Below, one piece after another: positions 1,365 through 63,175 of a stretch of DNA of 64,000 nucleotides. The notes below the pieces were generated by a model. That model saw only the letters and a program-made list of their open reading frames with translations. It was not told the origin of the DNA and did not search any database. Positions within the stretch are counted from its first letter, which is position 1, and each line of letters starts with the position of its first letter. The stretch is from Clostridia bacterium. GTDB taxonomy: Bacteria; Bacillota; Clostridia; Oscillospirales; CAG-272. Location of the stretch: NCBI GenBank assembly GCA_017453205.1, contig JAFTKO010000008.1, positions 91,218 to 155,217 on the forward strand, given 5' to 3'. Both the position numbers and the translations under genes were made by a program.

Positions 1365-1536
1365 GTGGGGAAACTTTTGAAAAAGTTTCCCCACGCCCCT
1401 TCAAAACTTTCAACGCATTTTTAGAGAAAGAACTTAAAATCTGTGCGCTTCACTTTTTCAATAGCTCCCGCCAACCATTACACTTTCTCCGTGGGAGAAA
1501 GCGGTTACCGCCACCCAAAATGGTCCACAAAGTTAC
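1365..1536 (+). repeat. R1 dispersed element, copy 1 (short type)
   Basis: Fills the gap between recD2 and the next gene (1294-1623), which holds no gene. Module A is a perfect hairpin at 1365-1394 (GTGGGGAAACTTTT, 2-nt loop, complement). Module B at 1459-1536 has outer stem ACCATT (1474-1479) with AATGGT (1519-1524) and inner stem CTTTCTCC/GGAGAAAG around GTG. A broken second module A start is visible at about 1312-1345. Confidence 0.9.
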
Positions 1537-1623
1537 TTTTACTTGGAACCGGTTGATGTTTTGCTTGACTTTACGCGAATGAATGTTAGATGAAAAAGTT
1601 CCCCGCTTTCAAAGGGCATCTCC

Positions 1624-1953
1624 TTATTCGGGATCGATCAAATAGCACTCGGCTCCATAGCGGTCGATGAGCTCGGCATAGTCGTCTGCAAGCTCCTCAC
1701 CCGTCCCTACCGTTCCGTCCATCAGCTCGGTGGAAAGCAATACGACCAGTCGCGCGTGTCCCTTTCTCAAAAACGCGGACTGTGCCTCATGCAACAGCAT
1801 ATCCAGCATATCCGCGTCTTTCTTTTCCCGCACCTCGACCGCCACGGCGATCCGCTCCGATGCAAACAACAACTCGAAAAAGGTTTTCAGTGCACAGCAA
1901 AAGCCGAACACGGCAAACAGCGCAACTCCGATTTCAATCAGTATCCGAAGCAT
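1624..1953 (-). CDS. Small membrane-anchored protein of unknown function
   Basis: A 109-residue protein I do not recognise. Residues about 1-25 form one hydrophobic helix (ILIEIGVALFAVFGFCCALK), followed by a charged soluble domain with a VAVEVREKKDADMLDMLL stretch and an acidic end. It lies about 70 bp downstream of metK on the same strand and could be its cotranscribed partner. I chose the ATG at 1953 because GAGGGG sits 7-8 bases before it; an in-frame ATG 18 bases upstream (1971) has no ribosome site. Confidence 0.6.
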   Translation of the reverse strand: MLRILIEIGVALFAVFGFCCALKTFFELLFASERIAVAVEVREKKDADMLDMLLHEAQSAFLRKGHARLVVLLSTELMDGTVGTGEELADDYAELIDRYGAECYLIDPE

Positions 1954-2022
1954 TTCATCGCCCCCTCTCATTTGCAGAATATGCGAAAAAGGGGAAATGG
2001 TTACGGAAACTCAAAAGTGCCT

Positions 2023-3210
2023 TTATTTCAACAGCTTTTTCAACTCGTCGACAAGGTCGCACTTTTCCCAAGGAGCATCCACGTCCTCGCGCCCCATGTG
2101 ACCGTAAGCCGCGATCTGACAGTAGATGGGTCTGCGGAGATCAAATTTCCGAATGATCGCCGCAGGACGCAGATCGATCAATCCGTTGATTGCCTCCTCG
2201 ATCTTACTCTCCGCAACCTTTGCGGTTCCAAATGTATCAATGCGCACCGAAACAGGCTTTGCCACGCCAATGGCATAGGCTACTTGAACCTCACACTTGC
2301 TTGCCAAGCCTGCTTTGACGATGTTCTTTGCCACATAGCGCGCCGCATAGCAAGCCGAACGGTCGACCTTGGTCGGATCCTTGCCCGAAAAAGCGCCGCC
2401 GCCGTGACGTGCGTAACCGCCGTAGGTGTCTACGATGATCTTGCGTCCCGTCAATCCCGTATCGCCCGCAGGTCCTCCGATGACAAAGCGTCCCGTGGGG
2501 TTGATGTAGATTTTGGTTTCATTGTCCATCATGCCTGCGGGAACGGTCTTGTCGATCACCTCACGAATGATATCCGCGCGGATCTGCTCCGTCGAAACAT
2601 CGGCACTGTGCTGAGAGGAGACAACGATGGCGTCCACGCGCACAGGGTTGTCGTTCTCGTCATACTCCACGGTCACCTGTGTTTTGCCGTCGGGGCGGAG
2701 GTAGGACAGTGTCCCGTTTTTGCGCACCTCGGTCAGTTTTTTTGCAAGGGCATGTGAAAGGGAAACGGGCAACGGCATCAGCTCGGGAGTTTCGTCGCAA
2801 GCATAACCGAACATCAGTCCCTGGTCGCCCGCGCCCGTGTCAAGGCCGTCGGTATCGGTTCCCTCTTTTGCTTCGAGGGATTTGTCCACGCCCATGGCGA
2901 TATCGGGAGACTGTGCGTGGAGCGAGGTGAGCACGGCACAGCTGTTGCCGTCAAAGCCGTATTCGCCGTTGTCGTAGCCAATTTCGCAAACGGTCTTGCG
3001 GACGATGGCTTGCACGTCGACTTGAGCCTTGGTGGTCACCTCCCCCATCACGCAGACCATGCCCGTGGTGCAAAAGGTCTCGCACGCGACTCTCGATGCG
3101 GGATCCTGTCTCAGCATTTCGTCTAAGATCGCGTCGGACACCTTGTCGCAAATCTTATCGGGGTGTCCCTCAGTCACCGATTCACTGGTAAACAATTTCT
3201 TCTTACTCAT
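2023..3210 (-). CDS. metK: S-adenosylmethionine synthetase
   Basis: Makes S-adenosylmethionine from methionine and ATP in the cytoplasm. The 395-residue product has the usual family length. Seen: the methionine/ATP-site motif GHPDK at residues 15-19, [12 protein letters not shown] in the middle, and the phosphate loop [16 protein letters not shown]. The ATG at 3210 is set by AGGAG 10 bases before it; the open frame runs 28 codons further upstream into the leader but those codons have no family match. Expression should be controlled by the SAM-I riboswitch and terminator in its leader. Confidence 0.97.
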
Positions 3211-3264
3211 GTTTTGGGTTCTCCTAAATGTTTTCAAAAGTTCTAAAACATATCTTGCTTTTGA

Positions 3265-3385
3265 CAACAAAAAAACTCCGCCGCGACGGAGCATTCGGCT
3301 CTCATCTAACAGGATTTAGCACCTTACACACCGCAGGTTGCTGTAACATCATCGTGCCTGTCACTACGTTACTCTTGATAAGATA
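3265..3385 (-). promoter_or_regulatory. SAM-I (S-box) riboswitch with intrinsic terminator, upstream of metK
   Basis: Read on the minus strand. The aptamer (about 3385 to 3300) has the class hallmarks in order: P1 arm CTTATCAAGAG, the kink-turn GATGA, CAACC, AAGGTGCTAAATCC, and the P1 closing arm GATGAG. It is followed at 3292-3271 by the terminator hairpin CTCCG/CGGAG and a run of seven T. When SAM is bound, transcription should stop before metK: feedback control. Identification rests on these conserved blocks; I did not fold it by computer. Confidence 0.92.
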
Positions 3386-3400
3386 TATTTTATTGCATAT

Positions 3401-3429
3401 AGTATACCACACATTCCGACAGTTTGCAA
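3401..3429 (-). promoter_or_regulatory. Sigma-A promoter of the metK riboswitch transcript
   Basis: -35 TTGCAA at 3429-3424, 17-bp spacer, -10 TATACT at 3406-3401, just upstream of the aptamer. Confidence 0.8.
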
Positions 3430-3535
3430 GTCTTTTTTCACTTTTTTCAAGGTACTTTTTCAAAAAACAAACCGATATTATAAAAATGAATAAGAAGCTT
3501 TTCTTTTACTGTTGGTTATTTGTGAAATTCGGTGC

Positions 3536-3564
3536 TTGACAGAAAGTCGAAAAAGAGGTATAAT
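3536..3564 (+). promoter_or_regulatory. Sigma-A promoter of the antiporter gene
   Basis: Consensus -35 TTGACA (3536-3541) and -10 TATAAT (3559-3564) with a 17-bp spacer, 48 bases before the start codon. Confidence 0.88.
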
Positions 3565-3612
3565 TGTGAAGTATTTTAATAAAGGAAAACAGGAGAAAAG
3601 AAGGACATTTTT

Positions 3613-4923
3613 ATGAACGATTTTGATATTCTTTTTACATTGGCACTTGCGCTGTTTGCGGGACTGTTTATGTCGCGTATCGTCAAACCCTTGGGACTGC
3701 CCGCGGTCACAGGCTATCTTTTGGCGGGGATCTTACTCGGTCCCTACTGTCTCGGAAATCTCGGAGTAACCGGCTTGTTTGAAAGCATGGAGTCGATGGA
3801 CACGATGGCAACTATCGTACAGGACGTTGCCCTCGGCTTTATCGCGTTTGCCATCGGCACCGAGTTCAAGCTCTCGTCACTCAAAAAGACGGGGCGTCAG
3901 GCTACCGTGGTCGGTATTGTACAGGCGCTTGTTGCCATGTTGCTCGTAGACGGTGCGCTGATCGGTCTGCATTTTATCCTCGGCGAGGAAAGGCTCCCCC
4001 TGTCGGTCTGCATCACCTTGGGTGCTGTTGCAACCGCGACGGCTCCCGCGGCAACGCTGATGGTTGTCAAGCAATACAAGGCAAAGGGACCCTTGACCGA
4101 CATTCTGCTCCCCGTGGTTGCTTTGGATGACGCAGTGGGACTCATCTGCTTTGCAGTCTCCATCGGTGTGGCACAGGCGCTGGAGGGTGGTACTGTCAGC
4201 TTGATCTCGGTATTGGTCAATCCCCTGCTTGAGGTCGTTCTCTCCTTGGTGTTGGGTGCCGTGGTCGGTTTTGTCTTTACCGCGGTGGAAAACATGTTCA
4301 AGTCCAACAGTAAGCGTCTGTGTCTCTCGATCACCTTTGTGCTCTTGACCATTGCGCTCTCGCAGCTGAGCTATACCTTTGCAAACGGTGTCAAGATCGC
4401 GTTCTCCAATCTGCTTGTCTGCATGATGTTGGGAACCATCTTCTGCAACATCTGCGACTCCGCCGACGAGCTGATGGAAAAGACCGACAAATGGACCATG
4501 CCCATTTTTATCCTATTCTTTGTGATCAGCGGTGCACAACTCGAGTTCAGCATCTTTAAGGACTGGATCGTCATTTTGGTGGGTGTCATGTACATGATCT
4601 TCCGTACCCTCGGTAAATATCTCGGTGCGCGTTGGAGCGCACAGGCGACCAAGTGCACGCCCTCCATCGTTCGTTACCTCGGTATTACTCTTCTGCCGCA
4701 AGCCGGTGTGTCAATCGGTATGTCGATCACAGCCGCCGCAGTTTTGGCAACCGGAGGTACAGTGCGCAACATCGTCCTGTTTGCGGTCATGATCTACGAG
4801 CTGGTAGGACCGATGCTGACCAAGATCGCACTGACCAAAGCCGGCGACATTACGCCCAAGCCCGCCGAAAAGCTCACCGTGGCGCAAGCCTTTGCCGATG
4901 AGCCCGATGAAGAAGATAAATGA
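3613..4923 (+). CDS. Cation/proton antiporter of the CPA2 (Kef/NapA-like) group
   Basis: A 436-residue integral membrane protein predicted to exchange Na+ or K+ for H+ across the cytoplasmic membrane. About 12-13 hydrophobic helices are readable from residue 5 to 415. The pattern FVLAFAIG-like GFIAFAIGTEF and the paired aspartates ALDDAVGL at D172-D173, in a membrane helix, match the ion site of CPA2 antiporters. There is no C-terminal TrkA/RCK domain: the protein ends in a short acidic tail (DEPDEEDK), so it is a bare-transporter form. It is a single-gene unit with its own promoter and the terminator at 4992. The ion is not determined by the sequence. Confidence 0.85.
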   Translation: MNDFDILFTLALALFAGLFMSRIVKPLGLPAVTGYLLAGILLGPYCLGNLGVTGLFESMESMDTMATIVQDVALGFIAFAIGTEFKLSSLKKTGRQATVVGIVQALVAMLLVDGALIGLHFILGEERLPLSVCITLGAVATATAPAATLMVVKQYKAKGPLTDILLPVVALDDAVGLICFAVSIGVAQALEGGTVSLISVLVNPLLEVVLSLVLGAVVGFVFTAVENMFKSNSKRLCLSITFVLLTIALSQLSYTFANGVKIAFSNLLVCMMLGTIFCNICDSADELMEKTDKWTMPIFILFFVISGAQLEFSIFKDWIVILVGVMYMIFRTLGKYLGARWSAQATKCTPSIVRYLGITLLPQAGVSIGMSITAAAVLATGGTVRNIVLFAVMIYELVGPMLTKIALTKAGDITPKPAEKLTVAQAFADEPDEEDK

Positions 4924-4933
4924 TGAGATGAAT

Positions 4934-4963
4934 TTTTTGGAAACCTCTTAAAAGAAGTTTCCA
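4934..4963. repeat. Hairpin related to R1 module A
   Basis: GGAAAC and GTTTCC pair around CTCTTAAAAGAA. The loop and arms resemble the R1 hairpin but the tail and module B are absent; a decayed copy or a chance likeness. Confidence 0.45.
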
Positions 4964-4991
4964 AAATACAGTTCCCGCGCCGACAGAATTC

Positions 4992-5031
4992 AAAAACCGA
5001 GCCCTTTGCATTTGCAAAAGGCTCGGTTTTT
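4992..5031. terminator. Bidirectional terminator between convergent genes
   Basis: CCGAGCC (4997-5003) pairs with GGCTCGG (5020-5026), with AAAAA before and TTTTT after, so it can end both the antiporter and the minus-strand ATPase transcripts. Confidence 0.88.
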
Positions 5032-5039
5032 GATGGTGC

Positions 5040-8707: not shown

Positions 8708-8771
8708 TCTCGGTATGCACGTCCTTTCCCACGCGATCCCTATTTTCGGATCGCAAATTTTCACTACTAAC

Positions 8772-8800
8772 AGTATAACATATTTTTCCCAAAAACGCAA
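8772..8800 (-). promoter_or_regulatory. Probable sigma-A promoter of the YhaO/YhaN pair
   Basis: -35 TTGCGT (8800-8795), 17-bp spacer, -10 TATACT (8777-8772) on the minus strand, about 65 bases before the start codon. Confidence 0.65.
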
Positions 8801-8872
8801 GACCGCTTTTGACGCAAATTGCGACGATTTTTTTGTTTTTGAAAAATTTTAAAAAGGAAATGCAGAAAACTC

Positions 8873-8901
8873 TTGACAACGGCGCCGTGTTGTGGTATAA
8901 T
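8873..8901 (+). promoter_or_regulatory. Strong sigma-A promoter of tRNA-Gln
   Basis: Perfect consensus: TTGACA (8873-8878), 17 bp, TATAAT (8896-8901), 30 bases before the mature tRNA. Confidence 0.92.
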
Positions 8902-9125: not shown

Positions 9126-9399
9126 CACGACAACATTATTTACTTTTAGAGTGTTTTTCGTGGGGAAACTTTTGAAAAAAGTTTCCCCACACCCTTTCAA
9201 AACTTTTAACGCATTTTATATGTTGTTTTCGGGGGAATGATAGTGCCTCGTTCGTTAGCTTTCCGACGGTATGGGAATGTTGCTACGTTATTCCAAGCAA
9301 TAGCTCCCGCAACCATTTTGGTACCACCACCCAAAATGGTCCACATGGTTACATTGGATCCCAATCTCATACTTTAAATAAGTAAATGCTGTTGCCGTG
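9126..9399 (+). repeat. R1 dispersed element, copy 2 (long type, with end repeats)
   Basis: The most complete plus-strand copy; it explains most of the gene-free stretch 9049-9478. Left end CACGACAACATTATTTAC; right end (complement) CACGGCAACAGCATTTAC: imperfect terminal inverted repeats. Module A hairpin 9160-9190 (GTGGGGAAACTTTT arms). Between the modules lies the long-type linker GACGGTATGGGAATGTT. Module B stem ACCATTTTGG (9312-9321) pairs with CCAAAATGGT (9331-9340); the inner CTTTCTCC hairpin is missing. No clear target duplication is left. Confidence 0.88.
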
Positions 9400-10343: not shown

Positions 10344-10383
10344 AGAGCGGAAAACTTCCAAAGAAGTTTTCCGCTCTGTTTAT
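10344..10383. terminator. Bidirectional terminator hairpin
   Basis: AGAGCGGAAAACTT (10344-10357) pairs perfectly with AAGTTTTCCGCTCT (10364-10377); a T-rich stretch follows. It lies between convergent genes. The AAAACTT core echoes R1 module A. Confidence 0.75.
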
Positions 10384-28307: not shown

Positions 28308-28420
28308 GCGGGGGAGAGGGAGAACTTTTTTGTAAAAAAGCTCTCCCTCTCCCCCGCGCCCCCTCTCTCTTTCAAAAAATTTTTCACGTATTTATAAGAA
28401 TTAAATTTTAAAATCTATGC
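28308..28420 (+). repeat. Large hairpin with R1-like tail, after the methyltransferase gene
   Basis: GCGGGGGAGAGGGAG (28308-28322) pairs with CTCCCTCTCCCCCGC (28343-28357), and the inner arms CTTTTTT/AAAAAAG pair too. The following bases (a CCCC run, CTTTCAAAA, TTTTCACGTATTTATA, TTAAATTTTAAAAT, TGCGCTTTTA) track the R1 linker step by step, so this is a diverged R1 module A, probably also serving as a terminator. Confidence 0.6.
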
Positions 28421-28559
28421 GCTTTTATTTTAGAAAAAGAATTGATATCTTTCTAAAATTTTATTAAAAATATAGTTAAAGAATCTATGATAAAGGCTAT
28501 TTTTAATTATTTGTTTATTTTCCCATTTATTAAACTTTTTTGGTGAGGGGGATATATTT

Positions 28560-30898: not shown

Positions 30899-31131
30899 AG
30901 AGTGCAGACCTAAAGTACAAAAAATGTCAAATTGTACAAAGTCTTTAGTCGCTTTTTCTTTGACCATATAGGCGCAAAGAAAAAGCTTGCAAAAAGAAAG
31001 CGCCGAAAAAGGATTTCGCGCTCTGCGGAGCGCGAGGAGGGCTCCGCGCCCTCCACTGCGCGAGCTTTTGAAAAAGCTCGACCAAAACTTTCAGCAAACT
31101 GACAAAACTCGTTAGTTTTGTCTACAGGCTC
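30899..31131. repeat. R2 element, copy 1 (MITE-like, 233 bp)
   Basis: Nearly identical to 47804-48037. Ends: GAGTGCAGACC at the left and GTCTACAGGCTC at the right, which are inverted repeats of each other (GAG..TGTAGAC). Inside: GCTTTTTCTTTG pairing with CAAAGAAAAAGC, a GC-rich palindromic block (GCGCTCTGCGGAGCGC and GGAGGGCTCCGCGCCCTCC), and CGAGCTTTT/AAAAGCTCG. No coding frame. The right end lies 3 bp from the stop codon of the next gene. Confidence 0.88.
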
Positions 31132-31134
31132 AAA

Positions 31135-32569: not shown

Positions 32570-33031
32570 ATGTATTCGAGATACCATGACCGCCCCGTAC
32601 ACGTGCCCGAAAATTACAGCGGGTGCGCGTTTTCCGACCGTCCGGCCAAAGAAACACCACCTGCGGCACCCTACCGCTTGGATGTGGGAAAGCCGACACC
32701 CGCACCGTCGAGCGACCGAAAGGATCCTTCCGTCATGCCGCCCCCACCGCGCGCCGTGATCATCCCCAAAAAAGATGACGCACCGCCTCCTCCGCCTCCC
32801 GCCGAGGAAAAAGAGCGGCATGAACCCCATGAGGAAAAAAGAGAACATCACGACGCGGCGTTCCTGCAACCCTTTCAAGGGCTCTTCGGTCACATCGGGC
32901 ACGCCTTTCCGTTCTCCCACGGACTGGGCTTTGACGAGCTGCTTTTGCTCGGTCTGATCATTCTGCTCTCGCAAAACGAGGGAGACTCCGATGTCGTTCT
33001 TTGGCTGGCGTTGCTGCTGTTTTGCGGATGA
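32570..33031 (+). CDS. Proline/histidine-rich protein with hydrophobic C-terminal tail (third of three)
   Basis: A 153-residue protein of unknown function. Residues 1-100 are disordered, with PPPPRAVIIP and a charged run EEKERHEPHEEKREHHD. The last 35 residues form two hydrophobic segments split by acidic turns: DELLLLGLIILLSQNEGD and VVLWLALLLFCG. I recall similar tails in clostridial proteins near spore genes, a weak link. The ATG at 32570 is 7 bases from AGGAGG; a GTG two codons earlier overlaps that site. Its stop codon lies inside the 10-bp target duplication of an R1 element. Confidence 0.65.
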   Translation: MYSRYHDRPVHVPENYSGCAFSDRPAKETPPAAPYRLDVGKPTPAPSSDRKDPSVMPPPPRAVIIPKKDDAPPPPPPAEEKERHEPHEEKREHHDAAFLQPFQGLFGHIGHAFPFSHGLGFDELLLLGLIILLSQNEGDSDVVLWLALLLFCG

Positions 33032-33036
33032 TCTGA

Positions 33037-33329
33037 CACGGCAACAGCATTTATATTTTTTTAAGGATGAGGCTGGGATCGAATGTAACCATGTGGACCA
33101 TTTTGGGTGGTGGTAACCGCTTTCTCCCACGGAGAAAGTGTAATGGTTGGCGGGAGCTATTGTTTGGAACAACGTACTAACATTCCTATACCGTCAGAAA
33201 ACTACCGAAAGAGGAACAGACATTCCCGTGATAAAATATAAAATTCGTTGAAAGTTCTTGAGGGGGCGTGGGGGAACTTCTTGAAAGAAGTTCCCCCACA
33301 AAAAACTACAAGTAAATGCTATTACCGCA
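33037..33329 (-). mobile_element. R1 element, copy 4: 293 bp, end repeats and 10-bp target duplication
   Basis: Flanked by a perfect direct repeat GATGATCTGA (33027-33036 and 33330-33339). The left end CACGGCAACAGCATTTA and the complement of the right end TGCGGTAATAGCATTTA agree at 13 of 17 bases. Read on the minus strand: module A hairpin 33299-33268 (GTGGGGGAACTTCTT arms), long linker, module B with AACCATT/AATGGT stem (33147-33142 with 33102-33097) and inner CTTTCTCC/GGAGAAAG hairpin. No transposase frame, so it must move in trans. Confidence 0.85.
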
Positions 33330-33348
33330 GATGATCTGAAAAAAAGAC

Positions 33349-35026: not shown

Positions 35027-35200
35027 GTGGGGAAACTTTTAAAAAAGTTTCCCCACACCCCTTCAAAACTTTTAACGCATTTTTATAAAATAAGCTTTAA
35101 AATTTGTGCGTTTTACTCTTTCAATAGCTCCCGCAATCCGTTACACTTTCTCCGTTGGAGAAAGCGGTTACCGCCACCCAAACCGGACTACCGAGCAAGT
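35027..35200 (+). repeat. R1 dispersed element, copy 5 (short type)
   Basis: Hairpin 35027-35056 (GTGGGGAAACTTTT, 2-nt loop). Module B outer stem TCCGTT (35137-35142) with AACCGGA (35181-35187): a different stem sequence from copy 1 but still pairing. Inner CTTTCTCC/GGAGAAAG kept. The rest of the gap to 35415 holds a weak promoter-like TATAGAAT and an inverted CGGTAT/ATACCG around 35338-35360 that could be an operator of the next gene. Confidence 0.88.
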
Positions 35201-41190: not shown

Positions 41191-41376
41191 TATCACACTA
41201 AAAGTAACCTTGTGGACCATTTTGGGTGGTGGGAACCGCTTTCTTCCACGGAGAAAGTGTAATGGTTTGCGGATCTATTGAAAAAGAAAACGCACAAAGT
41301 TTAAAATTTATTTTAAAAAATGCGTTAAAAGTTTTGAAAGGGGCTTGGGGAAAACTTTTTCAAAAGTTTTCCCCAA
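41191..41376 (-). repeat. R1 dispersed element, copy 6 (short type)
   Basis: Minus orientation. Hairpin 41345-41376 (TTGGGGAAAACTTTT arms, perfect 15 bp). Module B stem ACCATT (41216-41221 on the plus strand) with AATGGT (41261-41266). It separates the exporter gene stop (41384) from its terminator. Confidence 0.87.
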
Positions 41377-47761: not shown

Positions 47762-47770
47762 TCCACAATA

Positions 47771-47804
47771 AACCCCCACGAAACTGAGTTTCGTGGGGGT
47801 TTTA
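47771..47804 (+). terminator. Terminator of the acyl-CoA ligase gene
   Basis: AACCCCCACGAAAC (47771-47784), loop TGA, GTTTCGTGGGGGTT (47788-47801), then TT. Confidence 0.88.
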
Positions 47805-48037
47805 GAGTGTAGACCAAAGGTGCAAAAAATGTCAAATTGTACAAATCCTTTAGTCGCTTTTTCTTTGACCATATAGGCGCAAAGAAAAAGCTTGCAAAAA
47901 GAAAGCGCCGAAAAAAGGATTTCGCGCTCTGCGGAGCGCGAGGAGGGCTCCGCGCCCTCCACTGCGCGAGCTTTTAAAAAAGCTCGACCAAAACTTGCAG
48001 CAAGCTGACGAAACTCGTTCGTTTTATCTACAGTCTC
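47804..48037. repeat. R2 element, copy 2 (MITE-like, 234 bp)
   Basis: About nine in ten bases match 30899-31131. Left end GAGTGTAGACC, right end GTCTACAGTCTC (inverted repeats). Same three internal hairpins. It lies directly against the ligase terminator, and a second hairpin with the same stem follows it. Confidence 0.88.
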
Positions 48038-48041
48038 TAAC

Positions 48042-49581: not shown

Positions 49582-49852
49582 CACGGTAACAGCGGTTATT
49601 TTTATTTTTTTTGTGGGAACCCTTTTGAAAAAGGGGTTCCCACACCCTCCCAAAACTTTCAACGCAGGTTTATATCTTGGCATCATGGGAATGTCAGTGC
49701 CTCTTTCGGTAGTTTTCTGACGGTATGGGAATGTTTGTACGCGATTCCACAGATACTCCCGCTGACCATTTTGGTACCACCACCCAAAACGGTCCACATG
49801 GTTACATTGGGTCATAATCTCATACTTTAAAAAAGTAAATGCTGTTGCAGTG
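49582..49852 (+). repeat. R1 dispersed element, copy 7 (long type, with end repeats)
   Basis: Left end CACGGTAACAGCGGTTA, complement of right end CACTGCAACAGCATTTAC. Hairpin 49613-49643 (GTGGGAACCCTTTT arm with one bulge). Module B stem ACCATTTTGG (49765-49774) with CCAAAACGGT (49784-49793). It takes up most of the gene-free 49499-49933. Confidence 0.87.
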
Positions 49853-54647: not shown

Positions 54648-54699
54648 AAAACACAGCGTAGCCGCGAGTATTTCACGGTTACGCTGTGTTTGTTTTTTG
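54648..54699 (+). terminator. Terminator of hisS-ruvX
   Basis: AACACAGCGTA (54650-54660) pairs with TACGCTGTGTT (54680-54690), then TGTTTTTTG. Confidence 0.88.
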
Positions 54700-54885
54700 T
54701 CAGAAACTTCTTAAAAGAAGTTTCCGACACCTTCAAGAACTTTCAAAAAAAGGATGATGTGGATATTGTGGAGTGTTTTTGCGCTATTCCGTAGTTTTTT
54801 GACGGTAAAGGGATGTTTGATTGCTTTATCCCAACAATAGCTCCCGCACCCGTTTTGGTACCACCACCCAAAACGGGCTCCCGAA
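54699..54885 (+). repeat. R1 dispersed element, copy 8 (long linker, right end lost)
   Basis: Hairpin 54699-54728 (GTCAGAAACTTCTT arm, one mismatch). Module B stem CCCGTTTTGG (54849-54858) pairs perfectly with CCAAAACGGG (54868-54877), a compensated change relative to copy 2. Confidence 0.85.
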
Positions 54886-56642: not shown

Positions 56643-56669
56643 ATGCGACCTCCTTTCTGTATTTCTTTC

Positions 56670-56851
56670 GTGGGGAAAACTTTTTAAAAAAAGTTTTCCC
56701 CACACCCCTTTCAAAAACCTTCAACGCATTTTTATAAATGAAATTTTAAAATTTGTGCGTTTTCCGTTTCAACAGCTCCCGCAATCCGTTACACTTTCTC
56801 CGTTGGAGAAAGCGGTTACCACCACCCAAACCGGACTGCCGAATAAGTAAC
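56670..56851 (+). repeat. R1 dispersed element, copy 9 (short type)
   Basis: Hairpin 56670-56703 (GTGGGGAAAACTTTTT arms, 16 bp). Module B stem TCCGTT (56785-56790) with AACCGGA (56829-56835). Closest to copy 5, including the right-hand CTGCCGAATAAGTA tail. Confidence 0.88.
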
Positions 56852-56933
56852 AATCCGTGAAAAGCAGGTAATACCGTATTTTTTACGTCAAGGATGCTTA
56901 TCTGAAAAAATTTTTCTCAAGCTCTTTCAAAAT

Positions 56934-57410
56934 TCACAGCGTTTTTATCACGATCACTTGTTCGGTCTCTGCTTTGTAAGCAACCAAAGCTTTTTTGTTA
57001 TTCAGCTCCGAAAAATGAGGTTTCAACATTCCGCGCATTGCCGCTATAAAAGGCGCGGTTTCGGCGAAAAAAACGCTTCCGTCATCGGTTTGGACAGTCA
57101 CTTTAAAACAGATAGTCGCGTTAAAATGCGGTTGCGGATCGGTCAAAACCGTTTCGCAGAATACCACTTCATCACAATTTTTTGTGATCGCCGACATACG
57201 GCAGAGCTGAATGATTGCCAACGGTACACAGAATGCCGCAACGGGGATCAGCAACAGTAAAAGACGAAAGCTTTGCACCAACAAAGAGATCAATGTCAGA
57301 AAACAGGCAAGCACCGCCAAAAGGAGCCCGCAACCGATCAGCTCTCTTTTGCACACCGTGTAATCTAAGGAGGTACGCAACAATGCTTTGTTTTCATCGG
57401 CTTTTGACAT
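56934..57410 (-). CDS. Small two-helix membrane protein of unknown function
   Basis: A 158-residue protein. Two adjacent membrane helices at about residues 24-70 (LIGCGLLLAVLACFLTLISL and LLLLLIPVAAFCVPLAIIQL), then a cytosolic beta-rich domain (FNATICFKVTVQTDDGSVFF, ETAPFIAAMRGMLKPHF, VAYKAETEQVIVI). No family recognised. It lies on the proS strand, separated from proS by an R1 module A. AAGGAG lies 11 bases before the ATG. Confidence 0.65.
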   Translation of the reverse strand: MSKADENKALLRTSLDYTVCKRELIGCGLLLAVLACFLTLISLLVQSFRLLLLLIPVAAFCVPLAIIQLCRMSAITKNCDEVVFCETVLTDPQPHFNATICFKVTVQTDDGSVFFAETAPFIAAMRGMLKPHFSELNNKKALVAYKAETEQVIVIKTL

Positions 57411-57429
57411 ACAAAATTCTCCTTCTTAA

Positions 57430-57476
57430 AAATGCGTTGAAAGGGTGTGGGGAAACTTTTGAAAAAGTTTCCCCAC
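57430..57476 (-). repeat. R1 dispersed element, copy 10 (module A only)
   Basis: GTGGGGAAACTTTT (57447-57460), 2-nt loop, complement (57463-57476), with the usual tail AATGCGTTGAAAGG on its left, so minus orientation. Located just after the proS stop. Confidence 0.85.
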
Positions 57477-57496
57477 AAAAACAAAACATATCATTC

Positions 57497-58939
57497 TCAA
57501 TACTGTCTGCCCCAGATGACCATATGCTTGGCGGGCTTGCCGCAGCAGACGCAGGTATCGGAGAGGTGATCCTCGGTAAAGGGGATGCAACGCGACTTGA
57601 CGCCGCCTGTGGTGTCCTTGATCTGTTCCTCGCATTCGGTCTCGCCGCACCACATGGCTTTGATATAGCCCGATTTGTTGGCGGCAATGTCGAGGAACTC
57701 CTCATAGGAGCGTGCCTCATAGGTACGGTTGGTACGGTTTTCAAGCGCGCGTTGGTACATTTCGTCGTGCACCTTTTGGAGCGCCTTTTCGACCTCCTCG
57801 GCAAGGTTGTCGAGCGAGACAAAAGTCTTTTCACGCGTCACGCGGCTGACAAGCACGCAGGAGTTATTTTCGATGTCACGCGGACCGATCTCAAGACGGA
57901 GCGGCACGCCTTTCATCTCGTACTGGCTGAACTTCCAGCCCGTGGAGTTATCGCTGTCATCGAGCTTGACGCGGAATTTCTTTGCAAGCGCGGCTTTGAT
58001 CTCGTTCGCTTTTTCCAGCACGCCCTCCTTGTGCTGTGCCACGGGAATGACGACAAGCTGAATGGGAGCGATGGCGGGCGGGAGGATAAGCCCGTTATCG
58101 TCGCCGTGCGTCATGATGATAGCGCCGATCATACGGGTGGAAACGCCCCAAGAGGTTTGGTGCGGATATTTTTGTGTGTTGTCACGCGCGGTGTACATAA
58201 TATCAAATGCCTCGGCAAAGCCGGTGCCGAAGTAGTGCGAGGTCCCGCCTTGAAGCGCCACACCGTTGTGCATCATGGGCTCGATGGTGTAGGTCTCGCG
58301 AGCACCCGCAAATTTTTCCTTTTCGGTCTTACGTCCCGTGTAAGCGGGGATCGCCAACGACTCGGCATAGAAGTCCTCATAGACCTTCAGCATTTGCAGG
58401 GTCTCCTGTCTTGCCTCCTCCTCTGTCTCGTGCATGGTGTGCCCCTCCTGCCACAAGAACTCGGAGGTGCGGAGGAACGGACGGGTGGTCTTTTCCCAAC
58501 GCACAACATTACACCACTGGTTGTAGAGCTTGGGCAGATCGCGGTAGGACTGGATGACATTGCGGTAATGTTCACAGAACAGTGTTTCGGAGGTCGGACG
58601 AACAATGAGGCGCTCGCTCAGCTTCGTTCCGCCGCCCATGGTAACAATGGCACACTCGGGCGCAAAGCCCTCTACGTGATCCTTCTCCTTTTGGAGCAAG
58701 CTTTCGGGAATAAACATGGGCATATAAACATTTTCGTGTCCCAACGCCTTAAAGCGTGCGTCAAGCTCCTTTTGGATGTTCTCCCAAATGGCGTAGCCGT
58801 AAGGGCGAATGATCATGCACCCTTTGACGCCGGAGTAGTCCACCAGCTCCGCCTTTTTGACAACGTCGGTATACCATTGCGCAAAATCAACGTCCATCGA
58901 CGTGATCTGCTCGACCATTTTTGCATTGTTTTTTGCCAT
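57497..58939 (-). CDS. proS: Prolyl-tRNA synthetase (type 3, archaeal/eukaryotic-like)
   Basis: Charges tRNA-Pro. 480 residues with no inserted editing domain, the ProS3 form also common in Clostridia. Class II motifs: [19 protein letters not shown] (motif 1), [24 protein letters not shown] (motif 2 area), [21 protein letters not shown] (motif 3). The C-terminal zinc-type domain has MWCGETECE and [20 protein letters not shown], with the usual terminal Tyr. Strong promoter at 59017-59045; no T-box seen in the short leader. Confidence 0.96.
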
Positions 58940-59016
58940 AACAAAACCTTTCCTGTCTCCGCAAAACGAATTTTACGGAATGATGTCGCATAAAAGCATA
59001 ATATTACATTATACTA

Positions 59017-59045
59017 ATTATAACGCAAGGCGGCAAAAATGTCAA
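59017..59045 (-). promoter_or_regulatory. Sigma-A promoter of proS
   Basis: TTGACA (59045-59040), 17 bp, TATAAT (59022-59017) on the minus strand. Confidence 0.9.
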
Positions 59046-59074
59046 GATGTTTTTGAAATTTGAGGTAACTTCCC

Positions 59075-59797
59075 ATGCAAAAAAGCAATTTGAAACACAT
59101 AAATCTCTGTAACGTAACCATCCACGACCTTACGGTGGACGAGGCGGTGGAGGCGGCATTGGCTGAGCGCGGCGCTCCATGCTTTACGGTCACGCCCAAT
59201 GCGCTGATGCTGGAGGCTTGCCGACGCAATCCCGCGGATGCCGCGCTGCTCAACAGTGCCACGCTCTCTCTCCCCGACGGCGCGGGAGTTCTGCTTGCCG
59301 CAAAAAAACAAAAAACACCGCTCGGCGGGCGTGTGGCTGGCATTGCATTTGGGGAAGCCTTGCTCAAACGGGCGGCACAAGACGGCTTGCGCGTCTTTTT
59401 ATTGGGCGGCAGCGACGGCGTAGCGCAAAGAGCGGCGGAACGGTTGTGTCAGCGCTTCCCCAACCTCACGGTCTGCGGGACGTATTGGGGCTACTTTGGC
59501 AAAGAGGGCGAGGACGACCGCACTGTATGCGCAATCATCCGCGCTTGCCGTCCCGATATTCTGTTTGTCTGCTTCGGCTTTCCCGCACAGGAGCGTTGGA
59601 TCGCCTCGCATCTCGACGCTCTCGGTGGTGTCCGTGTGGTCGCGGGACTTGGCGGCTCGCTCGATGTCTGGTCGGGGGATCTTCGCCGTGCCCCCGCACT
59701 CGTTTCCCGCCTTGGTCTCGAATGGGCATGGCGTATGCTCCGCCAACCCAAACGGCTCAAAGGCTTGCCCGCAATTGTGAGATTTGTGTTGAGATGA
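59075..59797 (+). CDS. WecG/TagA/CpsF-type glycosyltransferase
   Basis: A 240-residue family 26 enzyme that adds N-acetylmannosamine or a similar sugar to an undecaprenyl-linked carrier, an early step for teichoic-acid-like or other wall polymers. Seen: FTVTPNALMLEACRRNP, LPDGAGVLLAAKK, the conserved VFLLGGSDGVAQRAAERL nucleotide region, and VCFGFPAQERWIASH followed by GLGGSLDVWSGDLRRAP. The C-terminal LEWAWRMLRQPKRLKG is the usual membrane-binding end. GAGGTAAC precedes the ATG. Stands alone, divergent from proS. Confidence 0.92.
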   Translation: MQKSNLKHINLCNVTIHDLTVDEAVEAALAERGAPCFTVTPNALMLEACRRNPADAALLNSATLSLPDGAGVLLAAKKQKTPLGGRVAGIAFGEALLKRAAQDGLRVFLLGGSDGVAQRAAERLCQRFPNLTVCGTYWGYFGKEGEDDRTVCAIIRACRPDILFVCFGFPAQERWIASHLDALGGVRVVAGLGGSLDVWSGDLRRAPALVSRLGLEWAWRMLRQPKRLKGLPAIVRFVLR

Positions 59798-59878
59798 TAT
59801 TTTTTGGGCTGTCCCGGAATTGAAGATTATACGGAGATCTGTGTTACTCCGCGAATGCTTGTGGGAAAGCGTAAAAAT

Positions 59879-59937
59879 AGGCACCGTAACGATACGATGC
59901 CTAAAAATGTGCAAAAAAATGAAGTTGCACTTTTTTT
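59879..59937 (+). terminator. Hairpins after the TagA-like gene, second one a terminator
   Basis: AGGCACCGTA/TACGATGCCT (59879-59902, one mismatch), then GTGCAA (59909-59914) with TTGCAC (59925-59930) and seven T. Confidence 0.75.
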
Positions 59938-59955
59938 AGTTTTGTCTACAGTCTC
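59938..59955. repeat. R2 right-end fragment
   Basis: AGTTTTGTCTACAGTCTC matches the right end of both R2 copies; the rest of the element is missing. It lies just before the end of the PmbA-like gene. Confidence 0.65.
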
Positions 59956-59960
59956 GATAT

Positions 59961-61304
59961 TTATTTTCCCGCAATGCTAACGCCTTTGACAAGAACATTG
60001 GGGGAACCGAATACGGTAAAGCCGCCGGGAATACCCCATTTGACATCATTGCCGAGGCGGTCGATCTGTTTGAGCAGTTCAAAGAAGTTCCCCGCAACGG
60101 TAAAGGACTTGATGGGCTCGGCACGTTTGCCGTCGCGGATCATAAAGCCCGCGCTTTCAATGGAGAAATCGCCCGTGACCGCATTGGCACCCGCGTGAAA
60201 GCCCTTGCATTCGGTGATATAGATGCCGTTGCCGACGGCGGCAAAGAGCGCTTCCTCGGTGGCATCGCCCGCGGCAATCGAAAAGTTGTAGGGAGCGATC
60301 GAAACAGGCGAAGCGTAACTTCCCTTTTGCCCATTGCCCGTCGACGCGATCCCCGCTTTTTTGGCAGTGGTGAGGTCGTAGAGCAGGGTTTTGAGCACAC
60401 CGCCCTCGATGACGTTGCGGCGCGCGGTGGCAACACCCTCGCCGTCAAAGGGCGTTTGCATAGCGGCACCCTCACGCATGGGATCGTCTATCAAGGTCAC
60501 ACAGGGCGCGGCGACCGTTTCGCCCTCCTTTCCCGCAAGGAGCGACAGACCAAGCTGTGCGTTCTTTGCCGAGAACACGGGCGAGAAAGTGGACAGGAAC
60601 TGACGGAATTGTGTCCCATCAAACACCGCGTCATATTTCCCCGAGGCAATCGTTCCCGCGCCCAGTTTATCAAGTGCGCCTTGCACACCCTTGGCGGGGA
60701 GCTCTTTCAGCGCTTCATAGGAGGTGCCTTCACCAAACTCAAAGTTTTCCTGCGCTTCCTCGCCGTCGCGCACCACGGGGTTGACATATGCACCGCTCAT
60801 CCCCACGAGGTTGGAAAGCGAAAGCCCGTGGGAGTTATACATGGCGATCTCGGTGGTCACGGTCAGCGCACAGGTCTGTGTGCCGTCGGTCACCTTTTCA
60901 TTTTGCGCATAGAGTGCTCTTTGCAGAGAGAGTGCCGTGTCACGCACCGCCGCGGCATCGTTCAGCTTGACATCGCGTTCGGACAGCTTGGCATAGGCGG
61001 GAGAGCCCGCAAAGATGAACACCTCATCCTCGCTGTCGATGCAACGCGCGTTCGACATTGCCTTTTGCACCAGCTCTTCCAGCGCATCGGCAGTCATCAG
61101 CTCGCCCGAGGCATAGCCCATTTTGCCGTCTACGATGCAGCGAAAGCAGACACCGCCTCCCACACTCGAGGCAAAAGAGCTGATCTCATCCTTGAGTGTC
61201 TCGGCGCTGATGCTTTCCTCCATTTGGTAATAGATCTCGTACTCGGTCAGCCCCGCGCGTTCGGCGGCGTCGACCAATATCTGCTTCATTTCTTCAAATT
61301 TCAT
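59961..61304 (-). CDS. pmbA: TldE/PmbA-like protease partner
   Basis: A 447-residue member of the TldD/PmbA family; with TldD it forms a metalloprotease that trims peptides. This subunit lacks the HExxxH metal site, as expected for TldE. Typical blocks: YQMEESISAETLKDEISSFA, VDGKMGYASGE, VTLIDDPMREGAAMQTPFDG, GGVLKTLLYDLTTAKKAG and FHAGANAVTGDFSIESAGFM. It begins one base after the tldD stop, so the two are coupled. Natural substrate in this organism unknown. Confidence 0.92.
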   Translation of the reverse strand: MKFEEMKQILVDAAERAGLTEYEIYYQMEESISAETLKDEISSFASSVGGGVCFRCIVDGKMGYASGELMTADALEELVQKAMSNARCIDSEDEVFIFAGSPAYAKLSERDVKLNDAAAVRDTALSLQRALYAQNEKVTDGTQTCALTVTTEIAMYNSHGLSLSNLVGMSGAYVNPVVRDGEEAQENFEFGEGTSYEALKELPAKGVQGALDKLGAGTIASGKYDAVFDGTQFRQFLSTFSPVFSAKNAQLGLSLLAGKEGETVAAPCVTLIDDPMREGAAMQTPFDGEGVATARRNVIEGGVLKTLLYDLTTAKKAGIASTGNGQKGSYASPVSIAPYNFSIAAGDATEEALFAAVGNGIYITECKGFHAGANAVTGDFSIESAGFMIRDGKRAEPIKSFTVAGNFFELLKQIDRLGNDVKWGIPGGFTVFGSPNVLVKGVSIAGK

Positions 61305-61305
61305 A

Positions 61306-62685
61306 TCAGCGACCTCCTACGGTAATGGTGGAAACGCGGATGAGCGGCTGTCCCACATCGGTGGGGACACTGCCGCTGGACGAACCGCACATACCTTGCG
61401 CGGTCTCGAGATTTTGTCCGACCATATCGATGTTTTGCAGGATCTCGGAGCCGGTACCGATCAAGGATGCACCGCGCACGGGCTCACAGATCTTCCCGTT
61501 TCTCACAAGATAGCCCTCGGTGACGGCAAAGTTAAACGCGCCTGTGAGAGGATTGACCGAGCCGCCGCCCATTTTGCGGCAGTAGAGCCCATGCTCCATC
61601 GACGCGATGATGTCCTCGTTTTTGTCGGGACCGTTGGCAATAAAGGTGTTGGTCATCCGCGAGGTTGCCTCAAAGGTGTAGCCCTGTCTGCGTCCGCTCC
61701 CCGTCATGGGCATTCCCATACGGCGGGAGCCGAGGCGGTCGATCATATAGCTTTTGAGAATACCGTTTTCGATCAGCACATTGCGCTGTGTGGGCGTTCC
61801 CTCGTCATCGATGTTGACCGAGCCCCACGCGCCCGGGATAGTTCCGTCGTCGATCGCCGTGACCTTGGGATTGGCAATCTGCTGACCGAGCTTGCCCGCC
61901 ATTTGCGACGCGCCGATCGAGACCGAGGTTGCCTCCAAGGAGTGTCCGCAAGCCTCGTGGAAAATGACACCGCCAAAGCCGTTTTCAATGGCGACCGTCA
62001 TCGTGCCCGCGGGGCAGTAGTCGGCGCGCAGATTGACCATTGCTTGACGCGACGCCTCGCGCCCGATGTCGGCGGGATCGACCTTGTCAAAAAATTCAAG
62101 TCCCATCCCAGCTCCCGGCGACGCCGAGCCGGACTGATTGACCCCCGCAGCACTTGCAACCGAGGAGATGGCAATGCGCGTGCGCACATGGCGGTCGGTG
62201 GTATAAAGCCCCTCGGTGTTGGCGACCAAGATGGTATGGTCGACGCCAAGCAAGGAGCCCGACACCTGCGAAATAGCGGGATCGTACTCCTTTGCAGCAA
62301 AACACCCCGCGCGCAACAGGTCGGCCCGCACACGCGCATCCACACTCGACGGCACAATGGCGGCGGGGTGGATATTGGGGAGCAGACGCTCACGCAAGGT
62401 TACACAAATCTCTTTTTTCAGCTCTCCCATGGCAACCGCCACCGCGCGGGCGCATTTCATCAATCCCTCGCGTGAGGTGTCGGATGTCGACGCAAACACG
62501 GTACGCGTACCGAGAAAGGCGCGAATGCCCACTCCCGAGATCAGATTGTCGGTGACACGGTCGATCTTTCCGTCCACCATCGAGACCGAATTGTTACGGG
62601 TGATCTCCCCGTAAAGCTCGGCAAAATCGGCACCGCCCGACATCGCGCAGGCAAGCACCGCTTCCGCGATCGATTTTGAAATCAT
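61306..62685 (-). CDS. tldD: TldD-type metalloprotease
   Basis: The 459-residue catalytic subunit. The zinc site HEACGH is at residues 243-248 in GGVIFHEACGHSLEATSV, with the later cysteine region GMCGSSSGSVPTDVGQP in place. Other family blocks: VDGKIDRVTDNLISGVGIR, DDGTIPGAWGSVNIDDEGTP and NTFIANGPDKNEDI. Ribosome site GGAGGAATGAACC before the ATG. Promoter at 62722-62750; operon tldD-pmbA. Confidence 0.95.
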   Translation of the reverse strand: MISKSIAEAVLACAMSGGADFAELYGEITRNNSVSMVDGKIDRVTDNLISGVGIRAFLGTRTVFASTSDTSREGLMKCARAVAVAMGELKKEICVTLRERLLPNIHPAAIVPSSVDARVRADLLRAGCFAAKEYDPAISQVSGSLLGVDHTILVANTEGLYTTDRHVRTRIAISSVASAAGVNQSGSASPGAGMGLEFFDKVDPADIGREASRQAMVNLRADYCPAGTMTVAIENGFGGVIFHEACGHSLEATSVSIGASQMAGKLGQQIANPKVTAIDDGTIPGAWGSVNIDDEGTPTQRNVLIENGILKSYMIDRLGSRRMGMPMTGSGRRQGYTFEATSRMTNTFIANGPDKNEDIIASMEHGLYCRKMGGGSVNPLTGAFNFAVTEGYLVRNGKICEPVRGASLIGTGSEILQNIDMVGQNLETAQGMCGSSSGSVPTDVGQPLIRVSTITVGGR

Positions 62686-62721
62686 GGTTCATTCCTCCGT
62701 TCACAAGCTGTATTGCATATT

Positions 62722-62750
62722 ATTATACCATAAATAAAGAAAAAATGCAA
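62722..62750 (-). promoter_or_regulatory. Sigma-A promoter of tldD-pmbA
   Basis: TTGCAT (62750-62745), 17 bp, TATAAT (62727-62722) on the minus strand. The -35 box lies within the arm of the hairpin at 62741-62780. Confidence 0.78.
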
Positions 62751-62780
62751 TCTCTTTCGCTGTTTTGAGATTGCATTTTT
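62741..62780. terminator. Perfect bidirectional hairpin terminator
   Basis: AAAAATGCAATCTC (62741-62754) pairs with GAGATTGCATTTTT (62767-62780). No obvious gene feeds into it from either side except possible read-through from tRNA-Glu; it overlaps the tldD promoter. A further CCGTTTTT/AAAAACGG hairpin is at about 62803-62820. Confidence 0.7.
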
Positions 62781-62869
62781 TATCATGGGCAAGTGTTCCT
62801 CCGTTTTTTAGGAAAAACGGCGCGGAGAATATCGGCAACAGAGTTGCATACCAACCGCGATGGAACCTC

Positions 62870-62902
62870 GCAAAGAAAAAGCAAGTCTTTGTGGGGACTT
62901 GC
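62870..62902 (-). terminator. Terminator of tRNA-Glu
   Basis: On the minus strand GCAAGTC (62902-62896) pairs with GACTTGC (62887-62881), then TTTTTCTTT. Confidence 0.88.
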
Positions 62903-62914
62903 TGAATATTCAAT

Positions 62915-62989
62915 TGGTGACCCCTACGGGAATCGAACCCATATCTTCGCCGTGAGAGGGCGACGTCTTGACCGTTTGACTAAGGGGCC
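62915..62989 (-). tRNA. tRNA-Glu (anticodon CTC), CCA encoded
   Basis: Minus strand. Acceptor GGCCCCT pairs with AGGGGTC; the anticodon stem TCGCC/GGCGA holds the loop CTCTCAC, so anticodon CTC reads GAG. T arm GGGTTCGATTCCC. CCA at 62917-62915. A CTC Glu tRNA is an extra besides the essential TTC one. Single-gene transcript with its own promoter and terminator. Confidence 0.94.
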
Positions 62990-63006
62990 TTGTCAACGAC
63001 TTTCAT

Positions 63007-63035
63007 ATTATACCACATCTTTTTCAAAATTGCAA
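63007..63035 (-). promoter_or_regulatory. Sigma-A promoter of tRNA-Glu
   Basis: TTGCAA (63035-63030), 17 bp, TATAAT (63012-63007) on the minus strand. Confidence 0.83.
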
Positions 63036-63092
63036 GAGGTTTTTGAAAAAAAGTTAAATTTTTTTTTGAAAATCAAAGCCAAACTAACTTTG

Positions 63093-63175
63093 GGGGCGTT
63101 TTGGGTGGTGGTAACCGCCCTCTCCCACAGAGAAAGTGTAATGCCTTGCGGGAGCTATTGTTTGGAATAACCGTA
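63093..63175 (-). repeat. R1 dispersed element, copy 11 (module B only)
   Basis: Minus orientation. Outer stem here is GGCATT with AACGCC (63145-63140 with 63100-63095), changed on both sides relative to the other copies; the inner stem keeps pairing through G-T pairs. No module A. Confidence 0.82.

What the first reader, a model, noticed from the sequence alone, without database searches (positions are those of the whole stretch)
1365..63175. R1: a dense family of structured intergenic elements, about one per 6-7 kb
At least ten copies (1365, 9126, 33037, 35027, 41191, 49582, 54699, 56670, 57430, 63093), plus hairpin-only or diverged relatives (4934, 10344, 25165, 28308), lie only between genes, in both orientations. 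Each has module A (perfect 14-16 bp hairpin, GTGGGGAAACTTTT type, with an AACGCATTTTTATA-like tail) and/or module B (CAATAGCTCCCGC, an inner CTTTCTCC hairpin, and ACCACCACCCAAA). Two linker types exist: short (TTTAAAATTTGTGCG) and long (GACGGTATGGGAATGTT). I know no named family with this make-up.
Basis: partly seen in the sequence, partly recalled or inferred. Interest (0 to 1): 0.82.

Follow-up and report, generated by a model that had tools for sequence, protein, structure and literature searches.

The report
Modular hopping DNA repeats, gut Clostridia
The window holds members of an apparently unnamed family of short, hairpin-rich DNA repeats that have hopped into the gaps between genes many times in one group of gut bacteria, are built from interchangeable parts, and seem to depend on an enzyme borrowed from elsewhere to move.

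Summary
All ten listed copies exist; a core model finds 9 strong cores in the window, and palindromes with perfect arms of 12 bp or more number 9 against 0 in ten shuffles. Genome-wide the model finds 66 cores in 2.29 Mb, so one per 6-7 kb is local enrichment. Cores occur in 13 of 35 genomes of the genus, own included, and only weakly in 8 other genomes of a 395-genome family sample. Rfam, phages, plasmids and viral contigs give nothing; ISfinder could not be searched.

Best reading: non-autonomous mobile elements of BOX/MITE type. One end type (E2) carries terminal inverted repeats and 10-bp target duplications (0 of 2000 shuffles); window copy 33037-33329 has a perfect one, and five related genomes examined lack it. 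A second end type (E1) often sits in the loop of another palindrome. Hairpin form, linker, core tip and ends are interchangeable; the core stem shows compensatory changes. No autonomous partner was found.

Unexplained: the tail behind the hairpin tracks the hairpin's left arm in parallel register.

Verdict: a real, apparently undescribed modular mobile repeat family; new variant of a known kind.

The parts
1339..1588 (+). Copy a: E1-type element (hairpin A 1365-1394, linker 1, core with inner hairpin 1459-1528), lying inside a palindrome whose arms are about 1322-1338 and 1589-1604; right E1 end weak (7 mismatches)
   Evidence: (size 250, flank stem 11/14)
9126..9399 (+). Copy b: E2-type element, 274 bp, hairpin A 9160-9190, linker 2, core without inner hairpin 9298-9344; flanks match only 6/10 as target duplication
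33027..33036 (.). Left copy of the 10-bp target duplication GATGATCTGA of copy c
33037..33329 (-). Copy c: E2-type element, 293 bp, hairpin A 33268-33299, linker 2, core with inner hairpin 33093-33162; perfect 10-bp target duplication; site without element in the five related genomes examined
   Evidence: single-strand fold z -4.71 (DNA), -5.25 (RNA)
33330..33339 (.). Right copy of the 10-bp target duplication GATGATCTGA of copy c
35027..35200 (+). Copy d: hairpin A 35027-35056, linker 1, core with inner hairpin 35122-35191; no outer ends recognised
41191..41376 (-). Copy e: hairpin A 41345-41376, linker 1, diverged core 41212-41280; no outer ends recognised
49582..49852 (+). Copy f: E2-type element, 271 bp, hairpin with changed but still paired arms, linker 2, core without inner hairpin 49750-49797; flanks match only 5/10
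54696..54881 (+). Copy g: diverged hairpin and linker 2, core without inner hairpin 54835-54881
56670..56903 (+). Copy h: hairpin A 56670-56703, linker 1, core with inner hairpin 56770-56839, right E1 end and, after it, remains of a P right arm and tail (both by eye)
57446..57477 (-). Copy i: stand-alone palindrome P (hairpin plus short tail), no core
63091..63160 (-). Copy j: core with inner hairpin, hairpin A missing
28308..28425 (+). Diverged relative: long hairpin, tail and linker-1 remains without core
   Evidence: (family D9)

Best explanation
This is a lineage-restricted family of non-autonomous mobile DNA elements, mostly about 220-340 bp, built like BOX elements or MITEs from interchangeable palindromic modules. 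A typical element has an outer end, a hairpin (simple, or extended by two more hairpins in one arm), a tail, one of at least two linkers, a conserved core (CAATAGCTCCCGC, then a stem closing on a tip that usually contains ACCACCACCC), and the other outer end. E2 elements move by a cut that leaves 10-bp target duplications (shown). E1 elements often lie in the loops of other palindromes P, without a measurable duplication (shown for part of the copies; the insertion step is inferred). They are probably moved in trans by a transposase encoded elsewhere, at present or in the past (inferred). The conserved core and hairpin are probably recognised in folded single-stranded DNA or RNA form by that enzyme or a host protein (inferred). 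No evidence was found that they serve the host.
For: TIR: E2 20-mer with up to 3 mismatches, 32 hits in the genome against 0 for the reversed pattern; at least one of the 32, C14:12880, lies in coding-like DNA. Target duplication: 15 copies with both ends; flank identity 0.627 at length 10 against 0.312 shuffled, 0 of 2000; lengths 9 and 11 give 0.407 (6 of 2000) and 0.327 (148 of 2000). Without the three copies that have an end with 5-6 mismatches: 0.733 against 0.328, 0 of 2000. Empty site: copy c is absent from the orthologous gap of the five genomes compared (G022, G028, G006, G029, G019); G022 aligns straight across. E1: 8 ends in the own genome, 0 control; 70 in G020, 0 control; flanks score on average 9.65 of 14 as hairpin arms against 8.44 with partners shuffled, 0 of 500; 8 of 23 rows reach 11 or more. 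66 cores in the own genome, 13 of 35 genus genomes. Neighbour-gene orientations spread 24/18/17/16, 2 unknown, of 77. Many module combinations among 50 cores. Core stem: 95.3% of cells paired and 26 double-sided changes, 0 of 500 shuffles each.
Against: No autonomous element or transposase with these ends was found: the close E1 and E2 pairs seen are about 200-411 bp apart, and several ends are unpaired and were not all followed, for example C27:10523. DDE_Tnp_1 (PF01609) has no match in the own genome (assembly 73% complete). Only 7 of 15 E2 copies have 8 or more of 10 matching flank bases. E1 shows no target duplication at 2-12 bp, and 15 of 23 E1 rows have fewer than 11 of 14 arm pairs. 14 of 50 cores have no recognised end on either side. 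Two weaker covariation measures of the core stem are reached by 14 and 31 of 500 shuffles. Ends are species-specific while the core is genus-wide, the reverse of a simple MITE.
Confidence: 0.85

Rival explanations
1. The elements are cis-acting or trans-acting structured RNAs (leader, attenuator, terminator or small RNA) kept for a host function.
For: Core stem and hairpin keep pairing through changes within and between species; copy c folds far better than shuffles (z -4.71 as DNA, -5.25 as RNA).
Against: No orientation preference relative to neighbouring genes (24/18/17/16, 2 unknown, of 77, crude gene calls); patchy within the genus, 22 of 35 genomes without a core hit; target duplication and empty sites; no Rfam family. 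Stable folds are also typical of MITEs (PMC10969869, passages).
Confidence: 0.07
2. REP/RAYT-type repeats moved as single strands by a Y1 tyrosine transposase.
For: Short palindromes with conserved bases beside them; clear Y1 transposase genes in 3 of the 13 core-bearing genomes of the genus (G017, G018, G020), plus a 49-aa fragment in the own genome, against 1 of 22 core-less ones (G004; G019 has a hit below the cut-off); E1 copies without target duplication, part of them in hairpin loops.
Against: None in G022 (97% complete, 43 cores), G007 (81%, 51) or G014 (84%, 34). E2 copies have 10-bp duplications, which Y1 transposition does not make (recalled). No GTAG or CGTC tag, or complement, within 6 nt of 55 hairpins.
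Confidence: 0.06
3. E1 'ends' are simply the outer part of the element's own long closing stem, not an insertion into a pre-existing palindrome P.
For: The outer arms pair well in part of the E1 copies (8 of 23 rows with 11 or more of 14) and differ between copies.
Against: Right flanks in several copies continue with a P tail (own C14:17484, C8:42235, C40:27868; G020 L211 read in reverse), and P occurs in genomes with no core hit.
Confidence: 0.2
4. Chance or low-complexity similarity of terminators.
For: Some hairpin-only copies (4934, 10344, 25165) lack the tail and look like terminators (by eye).
Against: Nothing expected by shuffles or reversed patterns for the core, the palindromes and the E2 ends.
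Confidence: 0.01

Closest known systems
BOX elements of Streptococcus pneumoniae and S. suis (PMC3049150, passages read)
   Same: Interspersed, modular, hairpin-rich repeats; S. suis has two families with different end modules (A/C and E/F) around the same inner boxB module, as E1 and E2 ends surround the same core here; proposed parasitic.
   Different: No sequence comparison was made. Here one end type has exact 10-bp target duplications, the other is often found in palindrome loops, and the inner core stem covaries between species. boxB repeats in tandem as an inner module; here whole units repeat in tandem (G007).
MITEs (Correia, Nezha, QMITE2, RUP; PMC10969869 and PMC3049150, passages read)
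   Same: Small, non-coding, TIRs, target duplications, stable fold, intergenic.
   Different: MITEs are thought to be moved by transposons with matching ends; none found here. Here the inside is conserved across species and the ends change.
REP palindromes with RAYT (PMC3733652, passages read)
   Same: P is a short extragenic palindrome in high copy with conserved bases on one side.
   Different: No GTAG or CGTC tag, no clear match in distribution with Y1 transposase, and longer composite elements with TIR and 10-bp duplications.
SPRITE (terminator-like repeat of S. pneumoniae; PMC3049150, passages read)
   Same: Terminator-like hairpin repeat.
   Different: P has its T-run before the hairpin (46 of 55 have 5 or more T in the 9 bases before, 0 of 55 after) and a tail that tracks the hairpin arm.
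Double-hairpin elements and GC clusters of fungal mitochondrial DNA (recalled; one yeast mitochondrial mobile-DNA paper seen only in a search listing)
   Same: Short mobile hairpins that nest in one another (recalled).
   Different: Different genetic system; comparison from memory only.

Membership tests
MITE (non-autonomous DNA transposon) | Terminal inverted repeats | tested here: met
   E2 pattern 32 hits, 0 control; E1 pattern 8 hits, 0 control; looser E1 pattern 70 and 0 in G020, 14 and 2 in the own genome
MITE (non-autonomous DNA transposon) | Target site duplication of fixed length | tested here: met
   E2: 10 bp, 0 of 2000 shuffles. E1: not seen at 2-12 bp
MITE (non-autonomous DNA transposon) | Ends match an autonomous transposon in the host | tested here: inconclusive
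   No close pair of ends around a gene, some unpaired ends not followed; PF01609 absent; assembly 73% complete
MITE (non-autonomous DNA transposon) | Presence/absence at orthologous sites | tested here: met
   Copy c site without element in the 5 related genomes compared; one site tested
BOX-type modular repeat | Several modules in permutations, different ends around a shared inner module | tested here: met
   Module combinations and end types among 50 cores
BOX-type modular repeat | Sequence homology to boxA/B/C | not tested
   No box module sequence was compared
REP/RAYT | GTAG (or CGTC) tag beside the palindrome | tested here: not met
   0 of 55 distinct hairpins have either tag or its complement within 6 nt
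REP/RAYT | Associated Y1 tyrosine transposase | tested here: inconclusive
   Clear gene in 3 of 13 core-bearing and 1 of 22 core-less genomes; absent in G022 (97% complete, 43 cores), G007 and G014
Known Rfam RNA (T-box considered by eye) | Covariance-model match | tested here: not met
ISfinder MITE or IS entry | Match to a catalogued element | not testable with these tools
   ISfinder not held; phages, plasmids and viral contigs gave no match to the core

The most novel reading that the evidence does not exclude
Palindrome P is a new kind of folded nucleic-acid signal in which the tail lies along the hairpin as a third strand. The tail's letter runs track the hairpin's LEFT arm in the same 5'-3' order (G-run to C-run, A-run to T-run, T-run to A-run, TTCTT to AAGAA), which ordinary antiparallel pairing does not predict but third-strand (triplex) pairing partly does. 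The mobile core-bearing elements would use this shape both as their own end signal and as their landing pad.
Probability: 0.1. Interest if true: 0.85.

Novelty: new variant of a known kind. Interest (0 to 1): 0.55.

Why it matters
It adds an apparently undescribed, recently mobile repeat family in a gut lineage known here only from assembled genomes, with a clean insertion site (copy c), a core conserved between species, and ends that are exchanged. That inverts the usual MITE picture and gives a natural system for asking how modular repeats swap parts. The one insertion studied in detail falls between a stop codon and a promoter-like site, so such insertions could alter gene expression. If the parallel-register relation between hairpin and tail reflects a third strand, it would be a rare genome-wide covariation signature of triple-helix formation.

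Tried and rejected
T-box antiterminator likeness of the reverse core (by eye): no Rfam match. Autonomous partner through E2 or E1 ends: C12:35318 is an element cut off right after CAATAGCTCCCGC, and C1:20955 and C14:12880 show no further element; the unpaired E1 ends C27:10523, C29:71072 and C37:59905 were not followed. Y1 transposase link: not supported, though not excluded. Transposase PF01609: none in the own genome. Antiparallel pairing of the tail with the hairpin loop (a switch): fits TTCTT/AAGAA but not the A-run/T-run relation. Full triplex reading: C positions in the arm are matched by C, and arms with AGC are matched by GC, neither of which fits standard triads (recalled).

Limits of my own calls. 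Model R1 was built from 28 cores that I picked as distinct, with a hand-given structure shifted by one or two columns, so it works mainly by sequence. The stem count uses 19 of those 28: seven with the inner hairpin and two of odd length were left out. The genome search scored only 40 of 67-99 first-look candidates per DNA query, so 77 clusters is a lower bound; at least one pair (C29:107796 and C37:23142) looks like one locus assembled twice. One search has 23 rows, of which L125, L130 and C14 are each counted twice. One search includes three copies with an end at 5-6 mismatches; one search repeats the test without them. The 55 hairpins were picked by having a tail of the CAA(A/G)A..CTT kind; 12 of 55 could not be parsed. 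T-run and A-run lengths are equal in 25 of 34. In one search, 21 of 40 fetched P places gave no hairpin under my strict rule. In one search the inner-hairpin table is offset by one base. Copies of a repeat are related by descent, so permutation counts are not probabilities.
Full report
What was checked. The window is 64 kb of a 2.29-Mb, 73% complete assembly in 44 contigs. The ten listed copies are repeats of one another at the stated places. A core model finds nine strong cores, and the core pattern gives seven exact matches against none in 100 shuffles. Nine palindromes with perfect arms of at least 12 bp stand against none in ten shuffles. Rfam has no family for them.

Copy number and lineage. 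Three DNA queries give 77 clusters in the genome, a lower bound with at least one locus counted twice. The model gives 66 cores, so the window is about five times denser than average. Cores occur in 13 of 35 genomes of the genus, own included (66, 53, 51, 43, 34, 20, 17, 16, 6, 6, 5, 3, 1); the other 22 have no hit. In a sample of 395 genomes of the family, scanned with stricter filters, 8 genomes outside the genus have 1-3 hits, best E 1.2e-8. A scan of one genome for each of 84,980 species, by exact pattern, returned 20 loci, all in four MAGs: RGIG5253, RGIG6183, RGIG4228 and SIG659; the isolate titles of three name sheep or roe deer gut. A viral-contig scan and searches of phage and plasmid records found none.

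Anatomy. From 5' to 3': outer end; T-run; hairpin A, either simple or with two more hairpins in its right arm (GGCAAGCC and GGCAAAGCC tips); a tail; linker 1 or linker 2; CAATAGCTCCCGC; the core stem with or without an inner hairpin; outer end. Hairpin form, linker and inner hairpin occur in many combinations among the 50 readable cores. The core stem keeps 95.3% of cells paired across 19 distinct sequences, with 26 cells changed on both sides; no shuffle of 500 reaches either value and slid controls reach at most 5 cells, while two weaker measures are reached by 14 and 31 of 500. The inner hairpin is CTTTCTCC/GGAGAAAG in 15 and CCTTCTCC/GGAGAAGG in 10 of 29 copies; the other four are single variants (read with its one-base offset). 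In several G020 copies the tip of the core stem is replaced by other hairpins.

Mobility of E2. The end CACGGCAACAGCATTTACTT occurs 32 times with up to 3 mismatches, 0 in the reversed control. Fifteen copies have both ends. Their flanks agree at 0.627 over exactly 10 bp, against 0.312 with partners shuffled (0 of 2000); 7 of 15 have at least 8 of 10. Without three copies with poor ends the value is 0.733 against 0.328, again 0 of 2000. Copy c (33037-33329) is flanked by GATGATCTGA twice. The same gap in the five genomes compared (G022, G028, G006, G029, G019) holds no element, and G022 aligns across the site. The insertion lies between the stop codon of one gene and what looks like the -35 box of the next (by eye). 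E2 ends are common only in this genome (31 hits), with 4 in G014 and 0-2 in each other genome of the genus.

E1. The end TAAGCTTTGTTAACGTAAAAT has 8 hits in the own genome, 0 in the control. The looser AAGCTTNNTTARCGTAA has 70 in G020 against 0, 14 in the own genome against 2, and 1 in G014. The flanks of E1 copies tend to form the two arms of a hairpin: 23 rows, mean 9.65 of 14 against 8.44 with partners shuffled, 0 of 500; 8 rows reach 11 or more, the rest are weaker. No duplication is seen. The right arm is in several copies followed by a P tail. I read this as E1 sitting in the loop of a pre-existing palindrome P. P with tail is also found in genomes of the genus with no core hit: G003, G005, G008, G023 and G030 (19 of 40 fetched places confirmed by sequence). 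So P is a wider, separate layer. In G007 whole units also stand in tandem about 203 bp apart, and L208 holds a head-to-head dimer.

Orientation and function. Neighbour genes show no preferred orientation (24 convergent, 17 divergent, 18 and 16 in line, 2 unknown, of 77; crude gene calls). That, with the patchy spread, speaks against a host regulatory RNA and for parasitic DNA. Folding of copy c is far better than shuffles, as expected for MITEs.

Who moves it. Nobody was found. PF01609 is absent in the own genome. Clear Y1 transposase genes occur in 3 of 13 core-bearing and 1 of 22 core-less genomes and are missing from G022, G007 and G014. The close pairs of ends that I saw are about 200-411 bp apart and enclose no gene; some unpaired ends were not followed. 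A DDE-type transposase acting in trans is the natural inference from TIRs and 10-bp duplications.

The odd relation. In 55 distinct P hairpins, chosen by their tail, the tail type goes with the hairpin type: 34 TTTT/CAAAA, 19 TTCTT/CAAGAAC, 2 variant hairpins with CAAGAAC, no crossing. T-run and A-run lengths are equal in 25 of 34. In the 43 that could be parsed, run lengths agree in parallel register: A-run with T-run rho 0.85, G-run with C-run 0.64, C-run with C-run 0.87, each with 0 of 801 permutations; own genome alone (29) 0.86, 0.62 and 1.00, also 0 of 801. Among the 14 from other genomes A/T holds (0 of 801), G/C is weaker (6 of 801) and C/C is weak (108 of 801). Nineteen further P copies from core-less genomes broadly follow the same rule by eye, with one arm containing AGC answered by GC. 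Block inheritance of hairpin plus tail explains co-occurrence but not why each subtype is matched. A third-strand geometry (recalled chemistry) fits the G/A half and the T half, not the C positions. I leave this as unexplained.

Known families. BOX elements are the nearest analogue: S. suis has two families with different end modules around the same inner module (PMC3049150, passages). MITE and REP literature was read in passages only (PMC10969869; PMC3733652). P lacks the GTAG and CGTC tags of REPs (0 of 55). A text search for CAATAGCTCCCGC found no paper, and two topic searches showed none on this family among the papers listed (10 of 23 and 12 of 43). ISfinder was not available. I therefore call it a new variant of a known kind.

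Noticed in passing
30899-31134 and 47804-48040; solo end 59936-59971: A second repeat of about 240 bp, 94-95% identical, with end-like sequences GAGTGTAGACC and (G/A)TCTACAG(G/T)CTC; probably another MITE. Its hairpin CGAGCTTTT..AAAAGCTCG is followed by ACCAAAACTTTCAGC, much like P and its tail.
   Followed up: no
3299-3384 (-): SAM riboswitch (Rfam RF00162, 65.3 bits) directly upstream of the ORF at 2023-3294 on the minus strand.
   Followed up: no
10344-10377 and 47770-47802: Perfect 15-bp palindromes without the P tail, probably ordinary terminators.
   Followed up: partly
L208 (G020:C31), about 411 bp between E1 ends: Head-to-head dimer of the element with the same kind of E1 end on both sides.
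   Followed up: partly
L158 (G000:C12, around 35318): E2 element cut off exactly after CAATAGCTCCCGC, apparently running into the 3' part of a gene.
   Followed up: partly
G000 contigs C29 and C37: Matching hits in mirrored order (107796/23142 and 71072/59905) suggest that one stretch was assembled twice.
   Followed up: no
G000 contig C8 (54.8 kb): 14 of the 77 clusters, denser than the window itself; the elements cluster on some contigs.
   Followed up: no
P repeats, own genome and genus: Tail runs track the hairpin's left arm in parallel register.
   Followed up: yes
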